A model generated the notes under the pieces. The model ran no database searches. It was not told where the DNA came from and saw only the letters and a program-made list of their open reading frames with translations. This document shows positions 1,677 to 17,510 of a stretch of DNA of 64,000 bases, piece after piece. The number at the start of each line of letters is the position of its first letter. Position 1 is the stretch's first letter. This stretch comes from Phaeobacter sp. B1627. GTDB lineage: Bacteria > Pseudomonadota > Alphaproteobacteria > Rhodobacterales > Rhodobacteraceae. The position numbers were made by a program, and so were the translations under genes. The stretch lies in NCBI RefSeq assembly GCF_006265095.1, contig NZ_VCNK01000001.1, positions 1-64,000 of the forward strand, in the 5' to 3' direction.

Positions 1677-2303
1677 TTAAAATGTCTGACAGCCAGTGGC
1701 GGCGATTTCACCGGGCTTGACCGGGTAGTGCGGTTGTGGGTTAAGGACCACGCGCTGAATTCCGGTGATGCGTCGCATGCAACCATCCACCCAGGCCTCA
1801 TCTATGCCACGCCCACCCACATATATGTCGATCCAGTCGTGACCCTGGTGTCCGCTGTGACAGGGTCCGTTCTGCGGGCTGGGGCCGTCGCCGCAGAGAT
1901 CCTCGACGATGGCGTATTTCTGCAGGTTCTCGATGTAGAAACGCGTTCCTGCGGGATAGTCCATAATACTCGTTCTGCCTTGGCGCCTGTGGCCCACCGC
2001 AAGCGTGACGGGGTCGGCATAGGTTCCTGTGCCGCCTGCAGAGCGATGGATGACCGGGCGCGCGATCTGAGCCGAGCCGCGCGGCGTATTGTCCCAGAAA
2101 CTGTATCCGGTCAAATACACGTTCATCCTTTGCTCCGAATTTTCGCGGGCGATGTCGCGGGAGGCGTAGGGTATCCTGTCGCCGAGGCGCAGGTTGGTGC
2201 CTGCCCGGGTCAGGGTATCGTAGCCGACCCGTGGCGCATCACTGCAGGCAGAGAGAGTTACGGCGGTCGCAAAACATGCGAGGGACTTAAACAGGGTACT
2301 CAT
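1677..2303 (-). CDS. Lipoprotein with a possible double-psi beta-barrel domain
   Basis: 208 aa. The start at 2303 (MSTLFK) opens a lipoprotein signal peptide with lipobox L-S-A-C (Cys20), so the mature protein should be anchored at the cell envelope. The open frame continues far upstream through the neighbouring gene, but that part is antisense shadow. The C-terminal half (IMDYPAGTRFYIENLQKYAI, VEDLCGDGP, Cys-rich GPCHSGHQGHDWIDIYVGG) has the feel of RlpA/barwin-like double-psi barrels: a 'xYVVED.C' strand followed by a W-I-D-x-Y-V-G-G strand. Four or more cysteines could form disulphides. The gene is divergent from the three-gene cluster at 2586-11049, so they may share a control region. Specific function unknown. 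Confidence 0.7.
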   Translation of the reverse strand: MSTLFKSLACFATAVTLSACSDAPRVGYDTLTRAGTNLRLGDRIPYASRDIARENSEQRMNVYLTGYSFWDNTPRGSAQIARPVIHRSAGGTGTYADPVTLAVGHRRQGRTSIMDYPAGTRFYIENLQKYAIVEDLCGDGPSPQNGPCHSGHQGHDWIDIYVGGRGIDEAWVDGCMRRITGIQRVVLNPQPHYPVKPGEIAATGCQTF

Positions 2304-2585: not shown

Positions 2586-4076
2586 ATGGGAGAGTTTTCG
2601 GTCGAAGGCACCGAACTTAAGAAGCTTGTCAAAGTCGCCAAGAAACGCCCGCTCGCCTTTGCGGTTGCGCCCGGGACAGACGGGGACAGCTTTTTCTTTG
2701 CCCTGCACAAGAGGCTCGCGCCGGAGATTGTCGCGCGAGGTGTCAAAAAAGAAAGTGGAATCAACAAAATAGCCTATGGTCTGTGCTCTGTTGAGAGCAA
2801 GGAAATGGTGTTGACCTGCCAGCGTGAATTGCCCGCTTTGGCGAAGCGTTTGAAGAAATGGCTGAAAAAGCAGAAGGCCCCTTACAACGTTAAAATTCTG
2901 GACGAAAACGGCAATGTCATTGACACCGACATTGAGGATCTTCCGGACGATGCCCTCTATGATGAAGAGCCCGACGTCGAGGACGGGGAGGGCACGGGAG
3001 ATGACGGACCCGATCCGGCGGCCCAGGAGTTGCACAAGCGCATCCTTTCTCTTGTGCCGGACATCCGCGCATTGAACGGCCCCGCCCGGACCAAGCTTCA
3101 GGCTGCGGCAAAGGCTGCATTGGACAAGAACGAGACGGGCGAGACGGAGGCCGCCGCAAAGCTTGTGGCGGCAATCGAGGCCGACCTCAGGAAACGCCGG
3201 GCTGTTGCGTCGCCGGAAACGGGCAAACAGGACGGGCAGACAGCCAATGCGCTGGTGGAACGGCTGAAAGATCTGCGCCCGCGTTGCCAATCCACCCCGC
3301 CTCCTGCCAATGAAAGGCTCATGAAAGCCTGGGGGCTGGCTGCGGAAAAGCTCCGTGGAAAGGACTTCGCCGGGGTCGAGGCGGCGCTCAAGGCAATCGA
3401 GGCGGCGCTTGCCGAAAACCCGGTCACCGATCCGCTGCAGCAACAGTGGGAAACGCTGTGGGGGCGGCTGTCACCAGTCTTGCTGAAGGCGCTCAATGCC
3501 GACCTGCCCGATGCCCAGCGGATGCGTGCGGCCATGCATATGGCCGACGAAGCGGCGTCTGTCGGTGACTATAAAAAGGCTATCGCGATTGCCAACCGCC
3601 TCGAAGAGGCCCTGAAGACCTCTCTGCAGAAGCACAAGGAACAAGCCAGTGCCTCCGACAGTGCGCTGGTGGATTTCACAAAGACCAGATTGCTCTGGAG
3701 CCGGGCCAGGTCCCTGCTGAAGGCTGAAATTGATAGGCTCGGCAAGGAGATCGTATCGGCCTGCGACGGAGAAGACTTTGAGGGTATCGAAAACGCGGTC
3801 GGGGACCTGCAGGGGTACTTGGACCCCATCGACGAAAAACTCGAGGATGCGCTGGACGATCTGATACAGGAGGCGGACCCGGTGAAGCGCGGTCCCCTGC
3901 GTCGGAAATGTCATGCTGTCATCGGTGACTATGTGGCCGAACTGAATTCCGGCATCTTCACGATTATTGATGATGGGAACGGGTTTGTTTCCGGGCTCAA
4001 GGTGCGCAAAGTCGCGGTTGCGGCGCTGGATGCGGTTGCCAAAGAGCTCGATAGGGAAAAGGAGCCGGTAGCCTGA
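2586..4076 (+). CDS. Uncharacterised helical protein, first gene of three-gene cluster
   Basis: 496 aa; family not recognised. GGGGG at 2577-2581 precedes the ATG at 2586. Residues 1-105 look like a compact mixed alpha/beta domain (LAFAVAPGTDGDSFFFALHK, an Ile/Ala-rich middle, then LTCQRELPALAKRLKKWLKK). Residues 106-144 form a strongly acidic linker (IEDLPDDALYDEEPDVEDGE). The remaining ~350 residues are charged helices with repeated 30-40 residue hairpins and no glycine-rich loop, Walker motif, signal peptide or membrane segment, so it is presumably cytoplasmic. The next gene starts 127 bp downstream on the same strand, and a third follows, so the three are likely co-transcribed. It could be a scaffold or adaptor; no enzymatic role is visible. 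Confidence 0.75.
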   Translation: MGEFSVEGTELKKLVKVAKKRPLAFAVAPGTDGDSFFFALHKRLAPEIVARGVKKESGINKIAYGLCSVESKEMVLTCQRELPALAKRLKKWLKKQKAPYNVKILDENGNVIDTDIEDLPDDALYDEEPDVEDGEGTGDDGPDPAAQELHKRILSLVPDIRALNGPARTKLQAAAKAALDKNETGETEAAAKLVAAIEADLRKRRAVASPETGKQDGQTANALVERLKDLRPRCQSTPPPANERLMKAWGLAAEKLRGKDFAGVEAALKAIEAALAENPVTDPLQQQWETLWGRLSPVLLKALNADLPDAQRMRAAMHMADEAASVGDYKKAIAIANRLEEALKTSLQKHKEQASASDSALVDFTKTRLLWSRARSLLKAEIDRLGKEIVSACDGEDFEGIENAVGDLQGYLDPIDEKLEDALDDLIQEADPVKRGPLRRKCHAVIGDYVAELNSGIFTIIDDGNGFVSGLKVRKVAVAALDAVAKELDREKEPVA

Positions 4077-4203
4077 TCCGGGCTGACCGGCTCGCAAGAC
4101 GTCGTTGAAGACTTTTTATTGAGGCCGCCCAACCGGTCTGATTTTTCATCGCCACACAGCCTGAGGCAGCCCGCGACACCGGCTGCTGGGAATGGAGCGC
4201 AAA

Positions 4204-7200
4204 ATGCCTGATGACAACGCCCCGATTACGGTCAGCGATCTGGACACCAAAATGCTGGCCTTTCTGTCGAAATGGCTGGGAAAGAATGCGATTGTGTCCG
4301 GAGGCCTCGCAAAGCGGCTGCGTCGCAAAATGCTCAGCAAAACCAAGGTTCGCGATTTTCAGGACAACGTCAAAAGACAATACGTCGAATATGTGAACGC
4401 CAAGCAGAAAACCGATGGGCTATTTCGGGAACTTATGACCGAATATTCCGGATATTGGGACCAGATGGAGGATCTCAAGATCCGGATGCAGCAGACCGAT
4501 GCTGAGCTCCAAGACATAGCGAGAAAGGTGCATAATGCACCGGGGGACAGCCCGGCCTTCGAGGCCGGCACGGCACAGCTGCGGGCCATTCAGTATCGGA
4601 TCGCCACAATAGGCTTGCGCGCGGGCATCACCGCCGAGGCAATCGACAGACGCCGGGAGAATTTGAGTGAGGAAGAGCAGCGCAGGGCTTCTGCAGCCCT
4701 GTTGCTGGACCGGATCAAAGAGGCAGGTCAACAGCTTGCGGAGATGAAGGCGTTCACGGATGAGAGCGTTCTGACCCCTGCGCTGGTTAACCGTTCGATC
4801 GCGGGGGACGACGAGGCTGAAGACACCCGTGCGGGGGCGGTCGGAGCCTTGGATGGGGTGCATGCTGCTCTTGCGGAGGCGCTTGAGGCGCTGCGGGCCG
4901 AGGCAATCGCGGAGGACACGACCAGCGACCGGCTGACCGAACTCGGTGCGGAGCTGACCTCTGCGGTGAGGACGGCAAGCAGCGACCGGGCGGCGCCGAT
5001 CCGGGACCTGTTGTCCGTTGTCGAGGAAATGCGCGAAGCCGTGCTGGACCGGTTGACCGAATTGGCGGGCAGCGATCCGGTTGCCGGTCGCGAGGTGGCC
5101 CGGCAGGTCAAGATGGACGAGACCGTCGATAGGCTGCAGACCGGAATTGATGCGCTGTCGGCGAAAATCACCTCCCTGACCGGAAAGCTGGAGGCGGCAG
5201 AGGGGTTCAAGGAAAAGCAGCGCCTTGCCGAAGAGCTGCGCGGGATTGAGACGCAAAAGGCCGCATTGCAGGAGCGGCAGGACCAACTGGTTGCCTACAA
5301 AGAGAAAACGGCAGACCGGGTCGGCCGGATCGAGGACATTGCGGCAGAGGCGGCGGCCGTCAATCTCCTGATGGCCGCGATCCGCGACGGCACCCCGACG
5401 CCGGAAGAGGCGTTTCAGGCCTATCTGGAATCCAAGCCCCCCGACGCGCGCACCGTCAAGGAGGCCGCGTCGTCGAACAGCGACAGCAGCACCTTCAGGG
5501 AGCAGGTTCTGGCACGGCTGGACATGGACCTGGCAACATACACCAAATCGTCAGAAACAGTGGTCCCCGAGGCACGCATGTTCCTGAGTGAACCCGAAAT
5601 TACGCGCATCACTCAGGAACAGCTTGGCACGCTGACCATGATGATCAACAACGCGAAATCTTTGGCCTCTGCCGGGAAATACAACGAGGCGGAGATGATC
5701 CGGACGGATGCTCTGGCTCTGCATACGGACTTTGTCGCGTCACGCCATTTTGCGTTGCCCAAGCCTCAGGCAGAGGCACCTGACCCGTTTGAGGCCTTTG
5801 AGCGGACCCTGACCTCAGTCGCTGTGCTTCTTGATACGCTCTGGGGCAAAGGCGGGGATGCGGATGGGGCGCTCCGGGCCCGGCTGTCTGACATCAAGGA
5901 CATGCGCGATGCGCAAAAGCTTCGGGCGGACCCCGATCTGAGCGTGGCAACACAGGCCCTCAGCGCGCTTGAGGGCGATATTGTGAATGCCACGGTTCCC
6001 GACCGCGATCCGGTGGTGCTGGAAAAGGACAATGCCGCGAAAGAGGCCGCAGTGGCGAAGGTCTCTGAAATCAAACGCGAGATGCTGGACATTTTTCAGA
6101 CCAGAGAGATTACCGATCTGAGCCTTTTGGCGAACCTGCCTGAGGATCATGTGATTTCCATCACCGACTCGAACGGCGAGAAGAAATTCTATGAAATCAA
6201 GATGAAGGAATCCTCTGACAGCAACTTGATGATTGATCGTAGGGGCGAGGACTACAAGAACGTGCCGCGCGAGGATATGACGCGGTTGCGCCAGCAGATG
6301 CAGATGCTCGAACTGCTGTCTGACACCGACGCTCCGGGCTGTGCCAAGATGCTGGAGGACGCGACCGCCGCGGTACAAGAGCTGCTTGAACAGGTCCAGG
6401 ACGGTGACGCCTACAAAGCGGCCTATGACGAAATCAAGCGGGTCGCCGAATATCTGGCCGACGTGAAAATACGGGTCCTTTTTGAGGACTGGCGCCCCGA
6501 TGGCTATGGGGCTGACAAGGCCGCTTTTGACCGGTTGAAAGACGGTTGGGAGGGGTCGAAAAAGCCCGCAGACGTCGTGCGCGAAGCCCGCGCTCTCTAC
6601 GACAGGTTCGACCAGATTCACAAACCCGCAGCAGAATCCCTGCGTGAAGATCATGCGACAGCCAAGAAAAAGCTGGATGAGATCGAAAAGGATCTATCGG
6701 CGGACAAGAAGGGGACAGAGGCCAATGTCGGCGCCAAAATTGCGCAACTGACCAAGATGAAGCCCGAGGATCTGTTTGCAGGGACCGCGATCAATCTGGA
6801 AACGAAAACAGACGAAGAAAAGGCGCAACTGCTTGCGGCGCCTGACATTATTCGCGGGGCGCTTTCCTATATGAGGGAGGCCGACAAGACGTTCGCGGGC
6901 GCCCAGGGCAAGATCCGTGCCACGCTTTTGGACCTGAGGGAGGCCCTGGAAACCCGGTCGCGCCCCTCGGTGGATGACGTGCAGCGCCGGGCTGACGCGC
7001 TGTCGGATGAGCTGAGGCGCTCTTTGGTGGAGCTGGATGCGCTGCTGGCCAACAAGGCGAGCAATCCGGAGGCGTTCTTGCTCGGGATGGCGGCCTTTTT
7101 GGGGGAGGCGCAGAAAGGCACAATGGAGGCCCGCAACGACTTCGAGTTCGCCGAAGAGCAAAAACGTCTGTGCAAGGAAGAGCGGAAAAAGGTGCAGGAC

Positions 7201-7887
7201 TGGCTGGATCAGAACAGCCTGGAGACCCATGCCAATTATACCGAGTACACCTCCATCGCGGCTGCGCTGGGCGGGACCTATGACTCGATCGGACGGAACC
7301 TGGAGGCCTCCAAGGATTACAAACGCGCCGGGCAGGACTATATGGACGCGACCAAAAACTGGCGCGATCTCCATGATGACGTCACCAATGCGCAGGTGAT
7401 CGCAGAGGCCGAGTGGTTTTTCGATTTCGATGCCTGGCAAACGAAAATGCGGGCATCCGTCGCCAAGGTCGCCGTGGCCGCCGGCAAGGTTCAGGAAATG
7501 CTGAACGGCAAGTTCTCCGATGATGAGCGCAAAGACGATGACGAGGCAAAGGCCGCGGTGGCCGCCGTGAACACGGTGCTGAACATGTGTCAGGGCGACA
7601 AGAATAGCGTGCTGGTTTTCGATCCCGCCGTGACGCAGCGCCTGGCGAACCTTCGCAATTCCGATCACGCCGACGGCCAGCTGCCCCTGAAAGAGAAAAA
7701 GGCGATCATGGCGCAGCTCCGCGAGGACACGCTGAAGCAGGTCAGGCGCATCCGGACCCGGCTCGAAAGCGATCCGGCATTGGAGATCTACAGGAACAAC
7801 CCGCTCGATCGTGGGCAGACCTGGGTGCAGCTGACCGCCACCCTGCTGAATATGGAAACAGAAATTCTGAAGAACCTCGCGCCGTAA
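4204..7887 (+). CDS. Giant coiled-coil-type protein, second gene of cluster
   Basis: About 1227 aa; family not recognised. I prefer the ATG at 4204 (MPDDNAPI) over the in-frame ATG at 4192, because GGAG at 4195-4198 sits at a good distance from the former while the latter has GGGA immediately before it. The protein is almost entirely charged helix: a basic N-terminal patch (GLAKRLRRKMLSKTKV), long heptad-like stretches between about residues 100 and 430, and many further helices to the end. One short beta-like element (VISITDSNGEKKFYEIKM, about residues 650-667) interrupts the middle. There is no NTP-binding motif, signal peptide or membrane span. Thirty-six bases separate it from the third gene. 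It looks like a structural or filament-forming protein (inference). Confidence 0.75.
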   Translation: MPDDNAPITVSDLDTKMLAFLSKWLGKNAIVSGGLAKRLRRKMLSKTKVRDFQDNVKRQYVEYVNAKQKTDGLFRELMTEYSGYWDQMEDLKIRMQQTDAELQDIARKVHNAPGDSPAFEAGTAQLRAIQYRIATIGLRAGITAEAIDRRRENLSEEEQRRASAALLLDRIKEAGQQLAEMKAFTDESVLTPALVNRSIAGDDEAEDTRAGAVGALDGVHAALAEALEALRAEAIAEDTTSDRLTELGAELTSAVRTASSDRAAPIRDLLSVVEEMREAVLDRLTELAGSDPVAGREVARQVKMDETVDRLQTGIDALSAKITSLTGKLEAAEGFKEKQRLAEELRGIETQKAALQERQDQLVAYKEKTADRVGRIEDIAAEAAAVNLLMAAIRDGTPTPEEAFQAYLESKPPDARTVKEAASSNSDSSTFREQVLARLDMDLATYTKSSETVVPEARMFLSEPEITRITQEQLGTLTMMINNAKSLASAGKYNEAEMIRTDALALHTDFVASRHFALPKPQAEAPDPFEAFERTLTSVAVLLDTLWGKGGDADGALRARLSDIKDMRDAQKLRADPDLSVATQALSALEGDIVNATVPDRDPVVLEKDNAAKEAAVAKVSEIKREMLDIFQTREITDLSLLANLPEDHVISITDSNGEKKFYEIKMKESSDSNLMIDRRGEDYKNVPREDMTRLRQQMQMLELLSDTDAPGCAKMLEDATAAVQELLEQVQDGDAYKAAYDEIKRVAEYLADVKIRVLFEDWRPDGYGADKAAFDRLKDGWEGSKKPADVVREARALYDRFDQIHKPAAESLREDHATAKKKLDEIEKDLSADKKGTEANVGAKIAQLTKMKPEDLFAGTAINLETKTDEEKAQLLAAPDIIRGALSYMREADKTFAGAQGKIRATLLDLREALETRSRPSVDDVQRRADALSDELRRSLVELDALLANKASNPEAFLLGMAAFLGEAQKGTMEARNDFEFAEEQKRLCKEERKKVQDWLDQNSLETHANYTEYTSIAAALGGTYDSIGRNLEASKDYKRAGQDYMDATKNWRDLHDDVTNAQVIAEAEWFFDFDAWQTKMRASVAKVAVAAGKVQEMLNGKFSDDERKDDDEAKAAVAAVNTVLNMCQGDKNSVLVFDPAVTQRLANLRNSDHADGQLPLKEKKAIMAQLREDTLKQVRRIRTRLESDPALEIYRNNPLDRGQTWVQLTATLLNMETEILKNLAP

Positions 7888-7923
7888 CAGGCCGGGGCGT
7901 GCGATTTTGACCGGGGACCGAAT

Positions 7924-10900
7924 ATGCCACTGACAAGCGATGAATTTGACTGGGTTGGGTATGTATCCGGCAAGAAACTCGATGAGGCGGCCTATGCGCT
8001 GGCGCAGGAACGTGCAGCGGGTCGTGAGGAATTCCTCGGGGTGATGGATGACTATCTTGACGGGATCCGTGAAACGATTGCCGAAAGTCAGGATCTGGTG
8101 ATTTCGAACGACAATCATCCGCTGGCCATCACCCGGGCCTGGCGTCAACTGGTTGGTACTCAGGACAAAAACGTCACCCAAATCCCCTGGCGCGCCAACG
8201 AGGGGGATCTGGAGAACGCGAAACTGGGCAAATGGGCGATGCTGGTGGATGTCGAAATCGACACCAAGGAGGACATCGGCGAAGATACGCATGCGATTGA
8301 CCCGGTTGCGTTGGAAAAGATGCGGCAAGGCTATGAGCAGGCGATGGAGGCTCAACGCAAGATGGAGCTGCAGATCGGTCCGGACGGGATGCCGCTGTTT
8401 GATGATGATGATATCCGCCGGGAAGTCTGGACACCGCTGGTGCGTGCGGGCGTCATTCCGGACAATCTGGTCCCGGACAAATATTCCGAACATGCCATTG
8501 CCTTCAACGGGGCTGCGGAATTCTACGAAAAGAAGATCGAAGCCTTTTCCGCGACCACAACCACCGGGCGCGAGAATTTCAAGCTGGGGATGAAAATAGC
8601 CAAGGAAAGCGTGCAGCTTGCAGGGACGCTGACTGCGGAGGTGCTCTCGGCAAAAGATGCGATGGATGTCGCCGCCAAAAAGCAGGAGCTGATCGAACTC
8701 AAGGCAGAGAAATCGGCAGCGACCGACCCGGCTGAACAGGAACGTCTGGGGGACCTCATCGCCACGCGCAACAAGGAGATCGCTATCGCGGGCACGGATG
8801 AGATGATTGCAAAGGCCGCGACGACGGTGATCATCGGCGGGCTTTCTACAGTTGAGCTGATCGACGAACATCGCCATTCCAAAGCCGCGCCGCTGGACAA
8901 ATGGACCAACACGATTTCTCAGGCCTTGTCGATTGCCGAAAGCATGACCGTCGCCACAGTGCAGTCCGCGATGACCGCCAGCCAGTCCAATCCTTCAGAC
9001 GCGCAGTCCAAGGCAAAGGTCGCTTTCACGACGGGGGCCATCAGTACAGCCTTCAAAAGCGCAAAGGTTCTACCGCAGCTCGTTGTCATGGGGCAGAAAT
9101 TCCATGACCGCAATTACGAGGGTGGTTTCGATGAAATCATGAAGGTCATCGCCGGTCTGGGCGATGCGGTTGCGGCCGGAATCGTGGCCTCTGCGAACAA
9201 GTCCTATGCGGACCTGAAGGAGTCTGATTTCAGCACTCAGGATGACTACAACAATGCAGTCAACGACCGCAAAGACTACATCGCCGCACAACAGCAATTC
9301 GCCGCGGCGCTGAAACTTGGCATAACGGCCGGAGTGAATGTCAAAGCTCTGGGCAGGGCGATCTTCGTTGACAAAAACGCAGGTCAGGCTGCGTTTCTGC
9401 TGACAAATGGCCTGGCCGCAGGTCTCAGTATCGGTTTCAGCGAAGAGATGTACGATGGGCTCCGGGACGATATGTCTGCTGAGGAAATCGAGCAACTGGA
9501 CCATTTCAGACGCGCCTATGCGGAAATCCAGTCGGATCGAGTTCACGACAGTGGCTCCGCTTCGATGATGAGCAGTTTGAACAGCGCCCTGTCACAGTTG
9601 AACAATACGGCGGCCACCCTGAAGCCCGAGAGTGAAGCGGAAAGCCTGGGGCGCGACCTGGACGACGAAATCGCCCTCAGCCAGGAAGCCATCGCCCGCA
9701 AAGAGCTGGAGGCTGCCTTTTCGCCCGAAGGGATGGCGGCGATCCTTGCTGAGGCCGATGCGGAGCTGGTCGGGTTCGAGGAAATGTACTCCAATGCCTT
9801 TCCTGATCCGGACATCACCGGCAAGACCGAAGAAGAACTGGTGCGGGCGCAGGAATGTATCGACCGGGCGATGGCCAATACGTCCAAGCTTCGTCAGCAA
9901 GCGGAGTTCTGGAATACGCTGACGGCTGGTGCCTTGGGAGTTGCTGCCGCAATCGTGCCCGGCGCGGGCCTTGCGGTGATGCTGCAGAAGCTGGTGGTGG
10001 ATCTGGTCAAGATGCAAAAGGCCGCAGATGTGCACAACGCCTGGGTGGACAGTATGCGAACCGCATTTGCCGCCCGCGCGGGCACTGCGCCGGCCATCGA
10101 ACAGACCCTTGGGAACTGCTATGTGCACCTCAATCACGCGCGGATACAGGTGGCCTTTGATTCCGTCGCGCTGGGGGCCGAGGCTGCCAAGCTTTTGGAC
10201 CCCACCGGGGTGTCTTCTATCGTTGCCAGCACCAACAAGATGGCCAATGCCGTGGTCGAATTTGGCTTCAAGATGCATACTGAGATCGCCATCAAAAACG
10301 GCTGGGCTGCCTATCTCAAGGCGCGGGATAATCCCGGCAATCGCAAAGCTGCCCGGGCTGCGATGCGTTTGAATTCGACCCTGGCGAAATGTTGTATCGC
10401 ATATGGCGCGTCGATCATGGGCGATGCCTCGGCCCAGAACGCGCTGCGCATTTCGGGTCTGTCGGTTGAGGCTTTCAAGAATGACAAGGACATCTGCGTC
10501 AAACTGATCGCCTATCTCGAAAATGAACTGAAAGACGACCCCACCGTGCTTGGCGTTGAAAAGAAGATGGACAGCAACTGGCATCCCGGCAAGCCGTCTC
10601 TGACGCTCACCGGCTGGACCGCGTTCAAGGCGGCGGCGGCCAAATCCGCCGTCCCGAAGCTGGACGCAGAAAGCATGAGCACACCGGCGATTGACCGGTG
10701 CCTCGTCGAACTGGGCAAGCTTGAGGAATGGCAAAAACCGGAACTGTTTGAGAACGCGCGCCAAACCGACAGCACCATGGCTGCCGATCAAGAACCCGCG
10801 CCGAACGCGCTCAATCAGGAGCTGGCCGCGCTGGTGTCCAATCTGTCTGCCGCAGTCGATCTTCTCGAACGTCTTGCGGCTGCGGCGGGCGAGTATCGTC

Positions 10901-11049
10901 CAGTGGTCGCGGGCTCTGGGGCGACGGTACATGACGGGATGCAGGCCGTCAGCAAGACCGTTGCTGTGATGGCACGCGCCCAGGCCGCGGGCACCCGAAA
11001 GAATGCAGAGCTGATCAAGAAATTTCCGGACCAGATCGCCCTTTCCTGA
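7924..11049 (+). CDS. Large helical protein with hydrophobic hairpins, third gene of cluster
   Basis: 1041 aa; family not recognised. The ATG at 7924 follows GGGGA with six-base spacing. There is no signal peptide. Unlike its two partners it has hydrophobic stretches: about residues 300-313 (TTVIIGGLSTVELI), 490-506 (AAFLLTNGLAAGLSIGF) and 668-690 (GALGVAAAIVPGAGLAVML). The last, rich in Gly/Ala and followed by amphipathic helices, resembles membrane-inserting hairpins of pore-forming or vesicle-associated proteins, though this is only a look-alike. A 'WTPLVRAGVIPDNLVPDKY' segment and Asp-rich DDDD at ~160-163 stand out near residues 160-190. The C-terminus is a helical bundle. The gene probably ends the transcript: the 483-bp gap behind it holds tandem repeats and a hairpin. 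Confidence 0.75.
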   Translation: MPLTSDEFDWVGYVSGKKLDEAAYALAQERAAGREEFLGVMDDYLDGIRETIAESQDLVISNDNHPLAITRAWRQLVGTQDKNVTQIPWRANEGDLENAKLGKWAMLVDVEIDTKEDIGEDTHAIDPVALEKMRQGYEQAMEAQRKMELQIGPDGMPLFDDDDIRREVWTPLVRAGVIPDNLVPDKYSEHAIAFNGAAEFYEKKIEAFSATTTTGRENFKLGMKIAKESVQLAGTLTAEVLSAKDAMDVAAKKQELIELKAEKSAATDPAEQERLGDLIATRNKEIAIAGTDEMIAKAATTVIIGGLSTVELIDEHRHSKAAPLDKWTNTISQALSIAESMTVATVQSAMTASQSNPSDAQSKAKVAFTTGAISTAFKSAKVLPQLVVMGQKFHDRNYEGGFDEIMKVIAGLGDAVAAGIVASANKSYADLKESDFSTQDDYNNAVNDRKDYIAAQQQFAAALKLGITAGVNVKALGRAIFVDKNAGQAAFLLTNGLAAGLSIGFSEEMYDGLRDDMSAEEIEQLDHFRRAYAEIQSDRVHDSGSASMMSSLNSALSQLNNTAATLKPESEAESLGRDLDDEIALSQEAIARKELEAAFSPEGMAAILAEADAELVGFEEMYSNAFPDPDITGKTEEELVRAQECIDRAMANTSKLRQQAEFWNTLTAGALGVAAAIVPGAGLAVMLQKLVVDLVKMQKAADVHNAWVDSMRTAFAARAGTAPAIEQTLGNCYVHLNHARIQVAFDSVALGAEAAKLLDPTGVSSIVASTNKMANAVVEFGFKMHTEIAIKNGWAAYLKARDNPGNRKAARAAMRLNSTLAKCCIAYGASIMGDASAQNALRISGLSVEAFKNDKDICVKLIAYLENELKDDPTVLGVEKKMDSNWHPGKPSLTLTGWTAFKAAAAKSAVPKLDAESMSTPAIDRCLVELGKLEEWQKPELFENARQTDSTMAADQEPAPNALNQELAALVSNLSAAVDLLERLAAAAGEYRPVVAGSGATVHDGMQAVSKTVAVMARAQAAGTRKNAELIKKFPDQIALS

Positions 11050-11087
11050 GATCGCGGAGCCCGGCCCGCCCCGGGTCAGACCACGCG

Positions 11088-11166
11088 CCTGTCTGAGTCC
11101 GATCCTGTCTGACCCCGTCCTATCTAGACCCGGGCCTGTCTGAACCCGGGCCTGTCTGAACCAGGG
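11088..11166. repeat. Five tandem ~16-bp repeats
   Basis: Units at 11088-11103, 11104-11118, 11119-11134, 11135-11150 and 11151-11166. Consensus CCTGTCTGAACCCGGG; the last two copies differ at one base and the first three are more diverged. The array begins 39 bp after the stop codon of the third cluster gene. There are no spacers and units are short, so it is not CRISPR. Confidence 0.85.
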
Positions 11167-11212
11167 CTGACGAATCGAGCCTACCGGCAGCAGGCCAGTC
11201 GGGGCGATAAAT

Positions 11213-11233
11213 GAGGATTGGTGCACAATCCTC
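11213..11233. terminator. Perfect 8-bp hairpin, possible terminator or operator
   Basis: GAGGATTG (11213-11220) and CAATCCTC (11226-11233) are exact inverted copies around a five-base centre. It lies between the three-gene cluster and the polysaccharide synthase gene. No T-run follows directly, so it may instead be a protein-binding site. The rest of 11167-11532 has an AT-rich block (11255-11310) and a TTGACA at 11306-11311, but no gene that I can support. Confidence 0.4.
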
Positions 11234-11532
11234 TCGTGATTAGGTGCATTGATACCGAAATTTGAATAAAATTTGCAGAGTTTTGGATTAAAAATTAAGA
11301 AGATTTTGACAAAGGGTTCGACAGGCGGGATTCTGCCACCTGACCCATAGGGGCTTCAGATCTGGTGTGTCCGTGAGGGGTGGGGACCTCGATTTCGGAT
11401 CGCCGGAGAATTGACTGGAGCTTGCAGCGGGTTCGGGGGAACCGTGCCAGTTATAGTGCTGATTATATCTCCGACGAGGATCTACTCGTCTCATTTGATC
11501 GTGGTATCAATACTTTGCAGGGGAATTCCTCT

Positions 11533-14500
11533 GTGAGCAGATTTGCATTCCACTATGAAAACCTGACGTCTGGCCGGAATGCGCTAAAGGTCTTTGATGA
11601 CCCGCGGCAACTGCGGGCGCGCAGGCTGCGGCGTGTCATTCTTGCGCTGGGCTTCGGTCTTTGCCTTTGGGCGGGGCTATTCCTCAACGGAGCCGTATCC
11701 TGGCAGACGGCCTACAGTGACCTGAGCCGCTATTGGGGGGGCGAAAACGGGGCTCAAAGGCGTCTGACCGCCACATCACAGCCGCTTGAGCACCTGAGGC
11801 TCGCCTCGCTTCAGCCGCAACTGGATACCCGGCCAAGCTGCGAACAGCCCAGACAACCCTATCTTACGGCGATGGCGGATCCGACCAACGATGTTGTCTT
11901 CGCGCATCTGCCGACCACCTTTGACTGGGCTCACCTCTCGTTGAAGGACAGTTGCAATACGATCGGAGTTCTGGTGCCGGAATGGTTCCGGATCACGTGG
12001 GACGGAACCGCCGCCGAAACCACGATGGAAAACCGCTATACCCGCATGGCGGCGGAGGAATTCCGCAGGTCGTCGCGTTTGGTGCCGGACCTGATGCCAA
12101 CGGTAACCCTGGATCCCGGCCAGGACAAACCTGGCTTTTTCACCACTCTCAACTCCGAAGCGCCAAACATCGTAGCGGGTTTGGTTGACAAATTGCTGCC
12201 GCTCTATGCGCAGGGGGCCTGTTTCGACTTTATGGAGTTGAACTCCGGTGATCTGCGGATGCTGCGTCCGTTTCTGACCGCTCTGACGGCCGGGTTCGAG
12301 GCCCAAGGCCTGCAGAGCTGCATCGTTCTGAGCGCGACCGAAAGCCTGTGGCAAGACGCCGGCAGCATGGCGTTTTTTGACAAGGTCATCCTGAAGATGT
12401 TCAGCGAGCCTTGGGTCGGTACCGCTCCCGGTCCGTTGGCGCCCGATGCCTGGTTCGTTGAAACGGCCAGGCTCGCGGCTGAGGCCTTGGGACATGACAA
12501 GCTGGTGGCCGCACTCGGTAATTTTGCGGTGGAGTGGGTGTCGGGCCAGCCTCTTCCCACCGTCTTGCCCTATGCCGAGGCGATGGACAAGATCGCCAGA
12601 GCCGGCGCAACCGTTCGCTTCAGTCCCAAGACATCAGGCAGTTTCAGCGCGTTTCAGGATAGCGTCGGACTGTCTCACAAGATCTGGCTGCAGGATGCCG
12701 CGACGCTTCACAATCAAATTACGGCGCTGTCGGCCCTCGGCATTTCGCGCATCGGGTTGTGGTCCCTGGGACAAGAGGATCCCGGTGTCTGGACCGTGCT
12801 GCGTGGTCAGCAGATGACACAGGATGAAATGAGCGCGGATCTGGCCGTCGTCCAGCTCGACAATTTTGTTGGCTACCGGGGCGATGGCGCTTTTCTGCGT
12901 GTTGAAACACGCCAGTCCCCGGGCATCCGCCAGGTGCGGTTTGATCCTGAAACCGGTCGGGTTGCCTCGCAGGTTTATGATCTCATGCCGCGCCCCTATA
13001 CGATGGAGCGCTACGGCAAACCGGCTGGGCGCAAGGTGGTTTTGAGTTTCGACGACGGCCCGCACCCGACCAACACGGCGCAGGTTCTCGACAGTCTGAA
13101 GGCTACTCAAACGCCTGCGGCTTTTTTCGTCACCGGCAAAAGCATCATGGATGCGCCTGACCTTTTGAAACGGGTCATCGACGAAGGACATGAGGTTGGG
13201 GCCCATACTTTCTCACACCCCCGCATGGATCAGATTTCCAAGACGCGCCTGGACCTGGAATTCAGTTTGCTGGACAAGATCGTTGCGGGGGCCGCCGGGC
13301 GCAAGACGGTGATCTACCGCGAGCCGTTTCAGCGCAGCGGCGGACCAATCAGCGCGGAGCGTGTCAGACCCCTTGAGGCGGCAATGGCACGCGGGTTCCA
13401 GATCGCCGGTATGGATATCGTCCCCAGAGACTGGGAGGGGTGGAGCAGCCGCGAGATCACCGATTTTGTGGTTCAGGAGGTGGAGCGCGGTGCGGGCAAC
13501 GTGATCTTGCTGCACGACGGCGGCTTGAACCGGGAAGCCTCCGTGGCGGCGGTTCCATTGATCATCTCGGATCTGCGTGCGCGGGGCTATAGTTTCACCA
13601 CCATGGCGGACCTGCTGGGAACCACCCGGGCGGATCTGATGCCGGTTGCCGAAGGCGGCCATCAGACCTTTGACCGGGTGTCCTTCTCGGCGGTCGCTGG
13701 CGCGAAAACCTTTGCGGTTAGCGTGTTCTGGGTCATCCTGGCCATCGGCGTGATCCGTTCGGTCGTCATTCTGGTGCTTTCGGTTCTCAACTGGAAGGGA
13801 CGCCAGGCGGTCACTTTGGTCTCGCCACGGGTGGCGGTGATCATCCCGGCACATAACGAGGAAGAGGTGATCCGGACCTGTATCGAAAGCGTGCGCGCCA
13901 GCGACTACCGGAACTTCGAGATTATTGTCGTGGACGACGGATCTACCGATAATACCCTGAACGAAGTCTTCAAATTCAGTCACAAACAGGACGTGCGCCT
14001 GATCTCACAGCCCAATCAGGGAAAGTGGAGCGCATTGAACAGGGCCTTGCTGGGGGTGGAAGCCGATATCGTCGTTTGCATTGATGCCGACACGCAGATC
14101 AAAACCAACGCGATCACCCAGCTCGTGAAGCATTTCAATGACCCGAAAGTCGGCGGTGTGGCGGGCAAGATCATCGCCGGCAACAAGGTGAATTTGCTGA
14201 CCCGCATGCAGGCCTTTGAATACGCGACCTCGCAGAATGTGGAGCGCATGGCGTTTGATCTGGTCAACGGTATTCTGGTTGTCCCCGGTGCGCTGGGCGC
14301 CTGGCGGGTTTCGGCGTTGCGCAAGGCCGGGCTCTATAGCGATGCCACCTTGACCGAAGACGCCGATCTCACCATTCAGGTCAACCGGGCGGGCTACCGG
14401 ATCGTCTACGAACCGCGCGCGCGCGCCTACACAGAGGTGCCCGAGCAGGTCGGCCAGCTTCTGAAGCAGCGCCTGCGCTGGTCCTTCGGCATGTTCCAAA

Positions 14501-14946
14501 GCGCATGGAAGCACAAAAGCTCGATATTCGAGGGGCGCATGGTCGGGCTGTTCTCTATCCCCGACATGTTCATATTCGGGTATCTGTTCCCGCTTCTGGC
14601 GCCGATTGCGGATCTCTTCGTCGGCATCATGCTCTACAAACTCTTCATGGATGGCGGGGCGGGCGAAGCCGGCAGCAGTATCGGCAGCCAGCCGTCGCAT
14701 TACCTGTGGGCCTATTTCACACTGCCTGCGCTGGAGTTCCTGATCGCCGCCTTTGCGCTTGCGCGGGATGAGGACGAAAGCCTCTGGTCGCTGCTGCTAT
14801 ATCCTGTGCAACGTGTGTTCTACCGGCCGCTGCTCTACTATTCGGTCATTCGCGCCGTCTTGCGCGCCATCACCGGACGACTGGCGAGCTGGGGCGCGCT
14901 GAAGCGGCAGGGGCGGGACTACAGCCTTGTAACGGCCCGGTCATGA
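11533..14946 (+). CDS. Trifunctional GH18-like / polysaccharide deacetylase / GT2 protein
   Basis: About 1137 aa from GTG 11533, preceded by AGGGG; the open frame extends upstream to 11380 but the extra 51 residues look non-coding. Order: cytoplasmic N-terminus; membrane span (~residues 35-57); GH18-like barrel (~80-490, with FDFMELN resembling the GH18 acidic motif); NodB deacetylase (~500-690) with SFDDGP, HTFSHP, REPF and LLHD motifs; membrane span (~725-755); processive GT2 (~760-980) with VVDDGS, DADTQ, TEDAD and QRLRW; C-terminal membrane spans. The GT2 part resembles PgaC/NodC-type N-acetylglucosamine polymerases. Inference: one membrane protein that polymerises an amino-sugar polymer inside and de-N-acetylates or trims it outside. 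The next gene overlaps by 4 bp. Confidence 0.85.
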   Translation: MSRFAFHYENLTSGRNALKVFDDPRQLRARRLRRVILALGFGLCLWAGLFLNGAVSWQTAYSDLSRYWGGENGAQRRLTATSQPLEHLRLASLQPQLDTRPSCEQPRQPYLTAMADPTNDVVFAHLPTTFDWAHLSLKDSCNTIGVLVPEWFRITWDGTAAETTMENRYTRMAAEEFRRSSRLVPDLMPTVTLDPGQDKPGFFTTLNSEAPNIVAGLVDKLLPLYAQGACFDFMELNSGDLRMLRPFLTALTAGFEAQGLQSCIVLSATESLWQDAGSMAFFDKVILKMFSEPWVGTAPGPLAPDAWFVETARLAAEALGHDKLVAALGNFAVEWVSGQPLPTVLPYAEAMDKIARAGATVRFSPKTSGSFSAFQDSVGLSHKIWLQDAATLHNQITALSALGISRIGLWSLGQEDPGVWTVLRGQQMTQDEMSADLAVVQLDNFVGYRGDGAFLRVETRQSPGIRQVRFDPETGRVASQVYDLMPRPYTMERYGKPAGRKVVLSFDDGPHPTNTAQVLDSLKATQTPAAFFVTGKSIMDAPDLLKRVIDEGHEVGAHTFSHPRMDQISKTRLDLEFSLLDKIVAGAAGRKTVIYREPFQRSGGPISAERVRPLEAAMARGFQIAGMDIVPRDWEGWSSREITDFVVQEVERGAGNVILLHDGGLNREASVAAVPLIISDLRARGYSFTTMADLLGTTRADLMPVAEGGHQTFDRVSFSAVAGAKTFAVSVFWVILAIGVIRSVVILVLSVLNWKGRQAVTLVSPRVAVIIPAHNEEEVIRTCIESVRASDYRNFEIIVVDDGSTDNTLNEVFKFSHKQDVRLISQPNQGKWSALNRALLGVEADIVVCIDADTQIKTNAITQLVKHFNDPKVGGVAGKIIAGNKVNLLTRMQAFEYATSQNVERMAFDLVNGILVVPGALGAWRVSALRKAGLYSDATLTEDADLTIQVNRAGYRIVYEPRARAYTEVPEQVGQLLKQRLRWSFGMFQSAWKHKSSIFEGRMVGLFSIPDMFIFGYLFPLLAPIADLFVGIMLYKLFMDGGAGEAGSSIGSQPSHYLWAYFTLPALEFLIAAFALARDEDESLWSLLLYPVQRVFYRPLLYYSVIRAVLRAITGRLASWGALKRQGRDYSLVTARS

Positions 14947-17510
14947 AACGAAGGTGCTTTCTGAAGACCGTCGTGGCGGCGGGCGCGGCGAGTCTCACGC
15001 CGCTGGGTGCCGTCGCACGCGGGTTTCGCGGCGCGGTTTCGCCGCAAGGCTATCCTGTCATATCCCATGTGGACGGGCGGACCTCCTTTGCCCATCTGAT
15101 CGCGGTGCTGGACGCATTCGGATCGCGCAGTATTCCCGTCACCTGTCTTGTGTCGCCCTATGATGACGAGGGGCAGGCGCTCGGCGCTGATAGCGCTCTT
15201 GCCCGGTTGCTGTCCGGTCTCTTGCTCGGGGGCAGCAGCATTGAAATCGCACCTTTTCTGCCGGATATCGCCGGCCGGTCGCAGTATTTTCAGGCACGCT
15301 CCGCCCATGAGGCCGTGCAGACCCTGTACAGGATGCTGGCTCCGGTGGCGGGGGCTCTGCCGGCCCCGCTGCGCATTCAGACGCTCGCCTGCAGCAGCAT
15401 GCCACGGCCCGCATCACCCGAGGCGCTGCGCTCTGCCGGGATTTTCAACGTGCTGAGCTTGCCTGACAGCACCCGTGAGGTGCAGTCCGAAACATGGGAC
15501 AACGGCGTCGCCCGGCTTTTTGGCGGCACCCTGTGTGATCTCAGGGTGCCGCCGCAAACCGCCGAGACCGAGGCAGCCACACAAACGGTCTATTATCTTT
15601 CCGCAGCGTCGTTCGGCAAACTTCCCCTGGCCCAAGCCGAAGCGGCCGCGGACCAGTTTGCGGAGGCGCTATCGCAGCAGGAGCTGGCAGGCGAACGGTC
15701 GCTTCTTGCGGTCTATGATCTGCAGCTGCGGGACTCCTACCAGTTCCAGCGGATCATTTGCCTGCATCTGGCCGAACCCCTGGCGCTCTCCGGTCCGGAG
15801 CGATTGGCCTACACACGATTGGTATCCACGCTGGACGGGCTCGCCATCCCCTATACCCGAGGACCCGATTTGGGATCGGCAGGGCAGGCGGCGCAGGCTG
15901 GGGTCTGGGTTTCGACTGACACGGAACATTTTTCCCGGCCCGGAAAGCCGGCCTGGCCGACAGCTGTTCCTGTTCAGATCCGGCCGGGCGGCGACGGGCG
16001 AGCGGCCGAGGTGCGCACGACGCGGCCATTGGTTGCCGGGATCGGGGTGCGGACCGGGCCGGACACGGCGGCGCCCGGGCTCGGGGGGGACGGGATTTTG
16101 ACGGTGGCACAGCGCGATATCAACAGCGCTGTTTCGCCAGAAATGCTTGCCGCGGTTTTCGCCGGGCTGAAAGATCAGGTGATCGTTCTTGACGCCGGGG
16201 CCTTCTCGGATGAGCGGGCGCTACGGGATCTGGTTCAGGTTCTGAAGAGCCTGCCTGCGGATGGGGTAACGGCATTTCGAACCATCGGTGACTATGCCCG
16301 TCTGATTGCGCCGACCAGTCCGATTTGTCAGCGTCAAAGGCGTTTGGCGGCGGCCCGGCCAGCGATCGTGGCGCAGGACGCGGCTCTTTCCGAGATCATG
16401 CGGGACGAGCTGATGGAGGATGCGGCGGTCGCCTGGCGGTATTTTGAGGAATTCACCAATCCGAAAACGGGTCTGTGCCCGGCCACGGTGAATTTCGCGC
16501 CCGGCGGGCAGTTGCTTGAAGCGGTCACCATGTGGGATGTGGGAAGCCAGATCAATGCGCTGGTTGCCGCCTCTCAGATCGGGCTGATCGACGACAAGGG
16601 CCTGGAGACCGCGATTTCCAGGATATTGCCGAACATTGCCGGGCGCGTCTCCGATGGCAGGCGGTTGCCGCAAGGCTGGATCCGGACAGATCGGATCAGA
16701 TGGGGCAACCGGGATTTTGATGGCAGCGACGCCGGTCGGCTGCTGTCTGCGCTGGACAACCTGCGCCGCAACAGTGACTTTGGCGACCGCCTGCAAGAGC
16801 TTGTGGCGTCCTACGACTTTGAGCAAATCATCATCGGGGGAGAGGTTTTTTCCGTCCTCGAAGGTGAGCTGAAGAGCACCTATATCTCTCATAGTGCGCA
16901 TTACGCCGCCCGTGCGTTCCGGCGTTGGGGCTTTGAGGTGAACTCCCCCTATGAGGTTCTGGCCGGACGATCCGAGGCGGATGGACAGATGGCCCTGCTC
17001 GAATCCGCGTCGCGGATTGGGCCATTCGGGGCAGAGCCTTTGTTGCTGGAAGCGATGGAGCTTGGGATGTCACCGGAAAGCGCCTATCTCGCGGATGTGC
17101 TGTTCTCTGCGCAGCTGGAAGAATATGAGGAAACAGGGCGCCTTGTTTGTGTGTCTGAGGGGCCGATCAACAAAAGTCCCTGGTTCCTGTATCAGGGGCT
17201 GCAACTTGATGCGGCACCGCGGACCTGGGCCATAGACTCGGTCGATCTGGAACCGGAATATCGCACCCGCGCCTTTGTGGAGGAAAACCTGGTTGTCAGC
17301 AGCAAGGCTGCCTTCTTGTGGTCCGCCTATAAACCGCAGGAGTATTCGGAGCTGCTGCGCGACCATGTGCGCAGGATCGCCAAGACCCGCAACGGATATG
17401 CGTCCAGTATTTTCGTGAAATCCGGCATGCCCACCTCCTCCTATAGCGACCTCAATACAAACAGCGTTATCCTGCAGGCGATTGCCCACAGGTTGAATCC
17501 CACAGGTTGA
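14943..17510 (+). CDS. Tat-exported DUF3131-type protein
   Basis: 855 aa. The start overlaps the preceding stop as ATGA, so translation is coupled. The N-terminus MKRRCFLKTVVAAGAASL matches a twin-arginine signal (R-R-x-F-L-K). Residues ~30-470 look like a degenerate deacetylase-type barrel without the FDDG motif. Residues ~485-845 match what I remember of DUF3131 domains (YFEEFTNPKTGLCPATV, TMWDVGSQINALVAASQIGL, a WGNRDFDGSDAGR loop and repeated helical pairs), a six-hairpin-like fold common beside exopolysaccharide genes. Likely periplasmic partner of the synthase upstream, binding or cleaving the polymer. The last codons lie in a 14-bp tandem duplication. Confidence 0.8.
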   Translation: MKRRCFLKTVVAAGAASLTPLGAVARGFRGAVSPQGYPVISHVDGRTSFAHLIAVLDAFGSRSIPVTCLVSPYDDEGQALGADSALARLLSGLLLGGSSIEIAPFLPDIAGRSQYFQARSAHEAVQTLYRMLAPVAGALPAPLRIQTLACSSMPRPASPEALRSAGIFNVLSLPDSTREVQSETWDNGVARLFGGTLCDLRVPPQTAETEAATQTVYYLSAASFGKLPLAQAEAAADQFAEALSQQELAGERSLLAVYDLQLRDSYQFQRIICLHLAEPLALSGPERLAYTRLVSTLDGLAIPYTRGPDLGSAGQAAQAGVWVSTDTEHFSRPGKPAWPTAVPVQIRPGGDGRAAEVRTTRPLVAGIGVRTGPDTAAPGLGGDGILTVAQRDINSAVSPEMLAAVFAGLKDQVIVLDAGAFSDERALRDLVQVLKSLPADGVTAFRTIGDYARLIAPTSPICQRQRRLAAARPAIVAQDAALSEIMRDELMEDAAVAWRYFEEFTNPKTGLCPATVNFAPGGQLLEAVTMWDVGSQINALVAASQIGLIDDKGLETAISRILPNIAGRVSDGRRLPQGWIRTDRIRWGNRDFDGSDAGRLLSALDNLRRNSDFGDRLQELVASYDFEQIIIGGEVFSVLEGELKSTYISHSAHYAARAFRRWGFEVNSPYEVLAGRSEADGQMALLESASRIGPFGAEPLLLEAMELGMSPESAYLADVLFSAQLEEYEETGRLVCVSEGPINKSPWFLYQGLQLDAAPRTWAIDSVDLEPEYRTRAFVEENLVVSSKAAFLWSAYKPQEYSELLRDHVRRIAKTRNGYASSIFVKSGMPTSSYSDLNTNSVILQAIAHRLNPTG

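What the first reader, a model, noticed from the sequence alone, without database searches (positions are those of the whole stretch)
2586..11049. Three-gene cluster of large unrecognised helical proteins
Three consecutive plus-strand genes (496, ~1227, 1041 aa) encode charged, mostly helical proteins without NTPase motifs, signal peptides or known domains that I can name. Together they fill 8.5 kb. The first has a compact N-terminal domain plus an acidic linker, the second is coiled-coil-like throughout, and the third adds Gly/Ala-rich hydrophobic hairpins (e.g. ~residues 668-690) that could insert in or coat a membrane. It lies next to mobile-element debris and a divergent lipoprotein gene. 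The combination suggests a multi-protein structure (scaffold, filament, membrane-active assembly or defence module) rather than an enzyme pathway. The sequence facts are direct; the system idea is inference.
Basis: partly seen in the sequence, partly recalled or inferred. Interest (0 to 1): 0.75.

Follow-up and report, generated by a model that had tools for sequence, protein, structure and literature searches.

The report
T6SS cargo adaptor with two partners
Three neighbouring bacterial genes look like ammunition for a molecular harpoon (the type VI secretion system): one carries a delivery-type domain that related bacteria fuse to, or place near, different toxin-like proteins, and the other two look like delivered proteins.

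Summary
The three genes are real, conserved in order and under purifying selection. Gene 1 (P1) starts with a ~115-residue domain, here called P1N, that no searched library names. P1N occurs in 33 of 394 sampled genomes of the window's family; in 32 of the 33 a type VI secretion system (T6SS) sheath gene is present (101 of 394 overall; p=5e-20). In 18 of the 33 a P1N gene lies 2.0-2.2 kb from tssC. P1N also heads long proteins with different C-termini, one a nuclease followed by an immunity-like gene. Three cargo types occur both fused to P1N and as separate genes in loci that have a stand-alone P1-type gene. This points to a T6SS delivery domain that works in cis or in trans, like the Vibrio RIX secreted adaptors but of different size and predicted fold. 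P2 and P3 are then paired cargo. P3 has a recurrent hydrophobic VPG segment and no downstream immunity-sized gene, suggesting a membrane-active effector, perhaps against eukaryotes; that is inference. Against: one P1N genome has no T6SS match; the N-terminal cargo motif is weak and not significant in the window's own P2 and P3; the P3 fold could not be predicted; secretion is untested.

The parts
2586..4076 (+). P1 (P0001, 496 aa): putative T6SS cargo adaptor: N-terminal P1N domain, acidic linker, helical-looking repeats, C-terminal tail
2586..2930 (+). P1N domain (residues ~1-115), predicted alpha/beta, also at the N-terminus of long toxin-like proteins
   Evidence: alignment; AF2 (pLDDT 69.7)
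4122..4149 (+). hairpin plus T-run between P1 and P2, sequence largely kept in L055; possible attenuator or terminator
   Evidence: 14 terminator-like sites in the region against 9.9 expected, so weak; sequences printed
4204..7887 (+). P2 (P0002, 1227 aa from this start, 1231 from 4192): long cargo or bridging protein
4225..4332 (+). region of P2 aligned with the N-terminal cargo motif
   Evidence: family-level lead only; window copy itself not significant (rank 82)
7714..7884 (+). C-terminal tail of P2 that may be related to the C-terminal tail of P1
   Evidence: hhalign: short P1 forms vs L039/L093 middle proteins E 2.5e-5 over 49 columns; vs the P2 set itself only E 0.019
7924..11049 (+). 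P3 (P0003, 1041 aa): putative terminal cargo/effector, predicted all-helical at low confidence
9904..10023 (+). hydrophobic segment of P3 around VPGAG (residues ~661-700), recurrent in the family
10276..10713 (+). well conserved C-terminal region of P3 (residues ~785-930)
   Evidence: (dN 0.029 and 0.022 for the 100-codon blocks from 700 and 800)

Best explanation
The trio is an orphan T6SS cargo module. P1 is a secreted (or loading) adaptor: its P1N domain brings cargo to a T6SS, mostly of a subtype that has a second, divergent TssC-like protein, and its repeats and tail hold the cargo. P2 and P3 are cargo encoded for delivery together; P2 may bridge P1 and P3, and P3 is the likely active part, inserting hydrophobic segments into a target membrane. 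Shown by computation: the genes, their linkage, the T6SS association of P1N, and the occurrence of the same cargo types fused to P1N or encoded separately. Inferred: secretion itself, P1-cargo binding, P2 as a bridge, membrane activity of P3, and a eukaryotic or otherwise immunity-free target.
For: (1) P1N in 33 of 394 family genomes, VipB in 101 of 394, both in 32; Fisher p 5e-20; first sample 14 and 35 of 149, both in 13, p 1e-8. (2) A P1N gene 1972-2211 bases from tssC in 18 of 33 P1N genomes, the window's own genome (C49) included, where Pfam finds TssA, TssB, Hcp, gp25/TssE, TssF, VgrG, TssK and TssM. (3) P1N heads proteins with different ends: an NS_2 endonuclease (L127, E 4e-12) with a 133-aa ORF after it, and a HEV[GA]HAVDD end that I read as a metallopeptidase by motif (Pfam did not name it). 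A separate gene after a P1-type gene ends in CdiA_C (L054, E 1e-7). (4) Same cargo fused or separate: L051-L053 vs L036 (E 2e-59 to 8e-50 or better); L123/L128/L130/L133/L135 vs L139, with homologous immunity-like genes; L126 vs L054 (35 % over 827 aa). (5) In G089 (L039) a P1-P2-P3 set stands directly before OmpA/YceI and caspase genes of the kind found in the T6SS accessory operon of the own genome, 15 kb from tssC. (6) P1-P2-P3 order in 13 genomes. (7) A motif model trained only on N-termini of two other separate cargo types placed 7 of 20 P2/P3-type N-termini above all 895 background ORFs.
Against: G027 has a P1N protein but no VipB match at 98 % completeness. In (7) the other 13 of 20 ranked 26 to 236 of 677 reported rows, mixed with background, the window's P2 at 77 and P3 at 157; only 3 of the 7 had E below 0.01. 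In a second test of 11 proteins not used in training, three ranked 9-11, seven 38-205, one was not reported; window P2 and P3 ranked 82 and 179 of 1264 sequences. The separate cargo of the third pair (L054) does not show the motif. In G077 P2-P3 stand without an adjacent P1. P3 could not be folded with confidence (pLDDT 49), so pore formation rests on hydropathy. Neighbourhoods were not scanned systematically for vgrG, hcp or PAAR. No secretion or toxicity data were found for any member.
Confidence: 0.62

Rival explanations
1. P1 is an accessory structural part of this T6SS subtype, not secreted, and P2/P3 are non-toxic machine or envelope components.
For: In 18 of 33 P1N genomes one P1N gene keeps a fixed place 2 kb from tssC, as a machine gene would; P2 and P3 lack a recognisable toxin domain.
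Against: P1N is fused to a nuclease and to other toxin-like ends, several followed by immunity-like ORFs and away from tssC; G468 has ten P1N matches.
Confidence: 0.15
2. Only P3 (or P2) is an effector; the other is a large chaperone or a protector of the producing cell.
For: P2 and P3 are adjacent in 7 of 7 genomes with P2-like genes in the 149-genome sample; no immunity-sized ORF in 11050-11380 beyond overlapping or tiny ORFs.
Against: At family level P2-type proteins resemble other cargo at the N-terminus and perhaps P1 at the C-terminus; both signals are weak.
Confidence: 0.25
3. One reading: an intracellular scaffold, filament or defence module unrelated to secretion.
For: Long, charged proteins without library matches.
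Against: T6SS linkage of P1N and its toxin-like fusions; best PADLOC match E 0.011, partial.
Confidence: 0.06
4. Delivery by another route (for example an extracellular contractile particle), the T6SS link being indirect.
For: G027 carries a P1N protein without a VipB match.
Against: 32 of 33 P1N genomes have VipB and 18 have a P1N gene about 2 kb from tssC.
Confidence: 0.06

Closest known systems
[quoted passage not shown] PMC10435454: search listing with start of abstract, and passages)
   Same: An N-terminal delivery domain found fused to diverse toxins and also on non-toxic proteins at the head of three-gene operons that carry a separate cargo effector
   Different: In that paper RIX is an arginine-rich N-terminal region of ~55 residues with two helices; P1N is ~115 residues, predicted alpha/beta; no RIX sequence was compared here. 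The RIX operons are adaptor-effector-immunity; this trio has two large cargo-like genes and no immunity-sized gene after them.
WHIX-domain T6SS effectors (PMC12135965: listing and passages)
   Same: A secretion domain that defines a polymorphic effector class
   Different: By that paper WHIX is proposed to cap a VgrG tail and mostly carries peptidoglycan-targeting toxins; P1N carries at least a nuclease, and stand-alone P1-type genes exist. No WHIX sequence was compared.
T6SS adaptors DUF4123 (Tap), EagR/DUF1795, DUF2169 (names recalled)
   Same: Non-toxic protein encoded next to an effector and needed for its loading
   Different: P1 matches none of them in Pfam; P1N is also fused to toxin-like ends, which suggests it leaves with the cargo.
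Tripartite alpha-helical pore-forming toxins (recalled)
   Same: Several helical proteins with hydrophobic segments encoded together
   Different: Those are much smaller (recalled); here the partners are 1041 and ~1230 aa and linked to a T6SS; no usable fold was obtained.

Membership tests
Polymorphic T6SS effector class (delivery domain plus variable C-terminal toxins) | Same N-terminal domain on proteins with unrelated C-terminal toxin domains | tested here: met
   P1N on 13 fused proteins mapped, with several unrelated C-terminal groups; one named by Pfam, NS_2 endonuclease, one by motif
Polymorphic T6SS effector class (delivery domain plus variable C-terminal toxins) | Found in T6SS-bearing genomes | tested here: met
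   32 of 33; exception G027
Polymorphic T6SS effector class (delivery domain plus variable C-terminal toxins) | Downstream immunity gene (antibacterial members) | tested here: inconclusive
   130-150 aa ORF after 8 of the 13 fused proteins; none after the window's P3
Polymorphic T6SS effector class (delivery domain plus variable C-terminal toxins) | T6SS-dependent secretion | not testable with these tools
   needs a bench experiment
RIX | N-terminal ~55-residue arginine-rich two-helix domain | tested here: not met
   by predicted structure only: P1N is H-E-E-H-E-E-H-E-E over ~115 residues against the description in PMC10435454; no RIX sequence compared
WHIX | WHIX domain that binds a VgrG C-terminal tail | not tested
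   no WHIX profile or sequence held
DUF4123 / DUF1795 / DUF2169 adaptors | The corresponding Pfam domain | tested here: not met
   no such match for P0001 at E<=1 nor among the 17 P1-like proteins at E<=0.01
VgrG / Hcp / PAAR specialised effectors | Fusion to a tube or spike domain | tested here: not met
   no such Pfam match in P1, P2, P3 or in the cargo proteins and pieces scanned (not all fused proteins were scanned)
Alpha-helical pore-forming toxin | Confident fold match | tested here: inconclusive
   P3 model pLDDT 49, not searched; hydrophobic VPG segment only
Known anti-phage defence systems | PADLOC-DB model match | tested here: not met
   best E 0.011, one partial match of P2; none for P1 and P3

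The most novel reading that the evidence does not exclude
The trio is a T6SS-injected three-protein assembly: an adaptor (P1) docks to the T6SS, a bridging protein (P2) that shares its tail with P1 carries a membrane-inserting protein (P3), and the complex acts on a target that needs no self-immunity, such as a eukaryotic grazer or alga. It belongs to an undescribed delivery code of Rhodobacteraceae in which cargo is loaded by P1N fused in cis or supplied in trans.
Probability: 0.3. Interest if true: 0.8.

Novelty: new variant of a known kind. Interest (0 to 1): 0.62.

Why it matters
I found no description of a marker domain for T6SS effectors in Rhodobacteraceae in the literature searches made here. 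P1N, with its in-cis and in-trans forms, would give such a marker (84 places in 33 genomes), open a set of unannotated toxin and immunity candidates, and tie them to a T6SS subtype with a second, divergent TssC-like protein. If P1-P2-P3 is delivered together without immunity, it would be a testable case of a multi-protein T6SS payload, possibly against eukaryotes.

Tried and rejected
P1 homologues in viral contigs: none confirmed. Plasmid collection: one record, Qingshengfaniella alkalisoli NZ_CP042263.1, with P1- and P3-like matches. Class-wide sample: 4 of 289 genomes matched the P1 profile, one the own genome; G312 and G365 matched only in the repeat region and I do not count them as P1N carriers, which leaves G188. 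PDB sequence searches with P0003 and with the P3 and P1 profiles: none, one weak, and weak matches in the repeat region. Fold search of P1N: best E 0.067, not used. Structure of P3: too poor to search. Homology of P3 to the other cargo groups: none found by hhalign. Weak Pfam matches of the trio were below cut-off and taken as chance. Literature: six searches on T6SS effectors and accessory genes and one on TssB/TssC showed no description of this domain in their listings; that covers only the held open-access library, these terms and what the listings show. From papers I saw search listings, passages of PMC10435454, PMC12135965 and PMC13098142, and the outline with abstract of PMC13323088.

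Full report
Observation. The three plus-strand genes are present as described: P1 2586-4076, P2 4192- or 4204-7887, P3 7924-11049. Family libraries say nothing useful about them. A relative, a contig of MAG MedPE-SWcel (L055), has the same three genes in the same order at 81, 81 and 89 % identity. dN/dS is 0.15, 0.18 and 0.09; in P3 the lowest dN blocks are residues 100-400 and 600-900. The finding is a real, selected gene set.

What P1 is. The window's own genome has two further P1-like genes. One, on C49, stands divergent to tssA of a T6SS cluster in which Pfam finds TssA, TssB, Hcp, gp25/TssE and TssF (L005) and VgrG, TssK and TssM (L077), with TssC at C49:148490. The other, on C92, is followed by a 1138-aa protein and a 163-aa ORF. 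In 149 genomes of the family (149 genera) P1 matched 14, VipB 35, both 13 (p 1e-8). In 394 genomes the N-terminal domain alone matched 33, VipB 101, both 32 (p 5e-20); the two samples overlap. The exception is G027. Of six genomes reached through loci, 6 of 6 have VipB; three of them (L056, L060, L064) show the same coordinates as G682, G131 and G128 of the sample, so three (L055, L062, L063) appear to be additional. In 18 of the 33 genomes a P1N gene lies 1972-2211 bases from tssC, in 21 within 20 kb.

A modular domain. P1N also lies in long open frames of up to 1953 aa. I fetched 18 loci to look at P1N proteins. In the ORF maps, 13 showed a fused P1N protein of 967 to 1913 aa, two (L136, L138) a stand-alone P1-type gene, and three (L131, L139, L140) no P1N hit among the ORFs shown; in L139 the P1N gene appears. 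After 8 of the 13 fused proteins (L123, L126-L130, L133, L135) comes a 130-150 aa ORF; five of these plus that of L139 are homologous to each other, L127 and L129 form a second pair, and L126 matches none. Ends identified: NS_2 endonuclease (L127, E 4e-12); HEV[GA]HAVDD, read as a metallopeptidase by motif only (Pfam silent). Separate genes after P1-type genes end in CdiA_C (L054, E 1e-7) or contain a protein kinase (L038, E 4e-21; its relative L047, 35 % identical, was not scanned).

In cis and in trans. Three cargo types occur fused to P1N and as separate genes in loci with a stand-alone P1-type gene. (a) The metallopeptidase-like type: fused in L051-L053, L132, L134, L137; separate in L036, about 6 kb from the P1 gene of a T6SS cluster. 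(b) An unnamed type with a homologous immunity-like gene: fused in L123, L128, L130, L133, L135; separate in L139, with a P1N gene next to its immunity-like gene on the other strand. (c) L126, fused, against L054, whose upstream gene is P1-type (35 % over 827 aa). In the separate forms of (a) and (b), but not (c), the cargo begins with a short motif, roughly [S/T]xxQxx[F/W][I/L]xxY, often followed by a basic cluster. This cis/trans pattern is the best evidence that P1N serves delivery of the cargo.

P2 and P3. Across the 149 genomes P3-like genes are in 8 and P2-like genes in 7 of those 8, adjacent to P3 in all 7; all 8 have P1-like genes and VipB. The P1-P2-P3 order was seen in 13 genomes: window, L055, L040/L061, L037, L044, L045, L039, L062 (P3 split), L093 (P1 cut by the contig end), L138/L139, L145, L147, L149. 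The middle proteins form groups linked by BLAST within groups and by profile comparison between groups (P2 vs middle group E 2e-9, and 9e-14 with more rows; L039-type vs P2 only E 4e-4). Against: L092 has P2-P3 with no P1 nearby, and in L150 a P2 piece is divergent from P1 and P3 was not looked for.

The N-terminal motif. A model trained only on the metallopeptidase-like and kinase cargo placed 7 of 20 P2/P3-type N-termini (P3 of L037, L062, L039; middle or P2 proteins of L039, L040, L092, L093) above all 895 background ORFs; the other 13, the window's own included (ranks 77 and 157), were mixed with background. Of 11 proteins not used in training, three ranked 9-11 and the rest lower; window P2 and P3 ranked 82 and 179. 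After adding the hits to the model, L044 P3, window P2 and L055 P2 came next but with E above 1. The motif is a family-level lead only. P1 and P2-type proteins may share a C-terminal tail (E 2.5e-5 over 49 columns for short P1 forms vs L039/L093; only E 0.019 against the P2 set).

How it may work. P1 would load on the T6SS through P1N and hold P2 and P3 by its repeats and tail; P2 could bridge to P3. P3 is predicted all-helical at low confidence and has a hydrophobic segment around VPGAG or a similar VPG turn in most relatives, weaker in L039, L093 and L149. No immunity-sized ORF follows P3 before the next gene. In the RIX paper, effectors predicted to act on eukaryotes lack immunity neighbours (passage), so a eukaryotic target is possible here. 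Secretion, binding and activity are untested.

Comparison. The nearest known kind is the RIX class with its secreted adaptors. P1N differs in size and predicted secondary structure, has no confident structural match, and the T6SS adaptor domains in Pfam do not match. On this evidence it works like a RIX adaptor but is not shown to be a member. The listings show no description of it.

Verdict. A T6SS-linked delivery-domain family with an orphan three-gene cargo module: a new variant of a known kind, of good interest, with the activity of P2 and P3 still open.

Noticed in passing
L077 2884-6774 (own genome C49): One protein of ~1290 aa holds a complete TssB (VipA E 1e-63) and a divergent TssC (VipB E 6e-40) joined by a long acidic linker, besides the normal tssB and tssC genes. 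A divergent second VipB match is in the capped listing for 38 of 394 family genomes, 31 of the 33 P1N genomes among them; whether TssB is fused in those was not tested.
   Followed up: partly
L005 3250-9571 (own genome C49): Genes for TolQ/ExbB, TolR/ExbD, caspase (Peptidase_C14) and OmpA/YceI proteins next to the P1-like gene of the T6SS cluster; ORF maps look alike beside P1N genes in other genomes, e.g. L148 and L151 (by eye).
   Followed up: partly
L038 2742-5837: A separate cargo-like protein after a P1 gene carries a protein kinase domain (E 4e-21).
   Followed up: no
L138 and L139 (G468): One island holds a P1-P2-P3 set, then another cargo with an immunity-like gene and a second P1N gene.
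   Followed up: partly
window 11087-11167: About five copies of a 16-base GC-rich repeat just after P3.
   Followed up: no
window 1677-2303 (minus) and L055 3718-4344 (plus): The lipoprotein-like gene upstream of P1 lies in opposite orientation in the relative, so the flank may have been inverted.
   Followed up: no
L062 7579-10693: The P3-like gene of Pseudophaeobacter leonis is split into two overlapping frames, by decay or sequencing error.
   Followed up: no
G027:C37 (L051 3352-9009): A 1885-aa P1N protein in a genome without a VipB match; a relic, a missing region or another route.
   Followed up: partly
window 11380-17510: A protein with polysaccharide deacetylase and glycosyltransferase 2 domains, then a DUF3131 protein, right after the trio; the first also begins after the trio in L055.
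   Followed up: no
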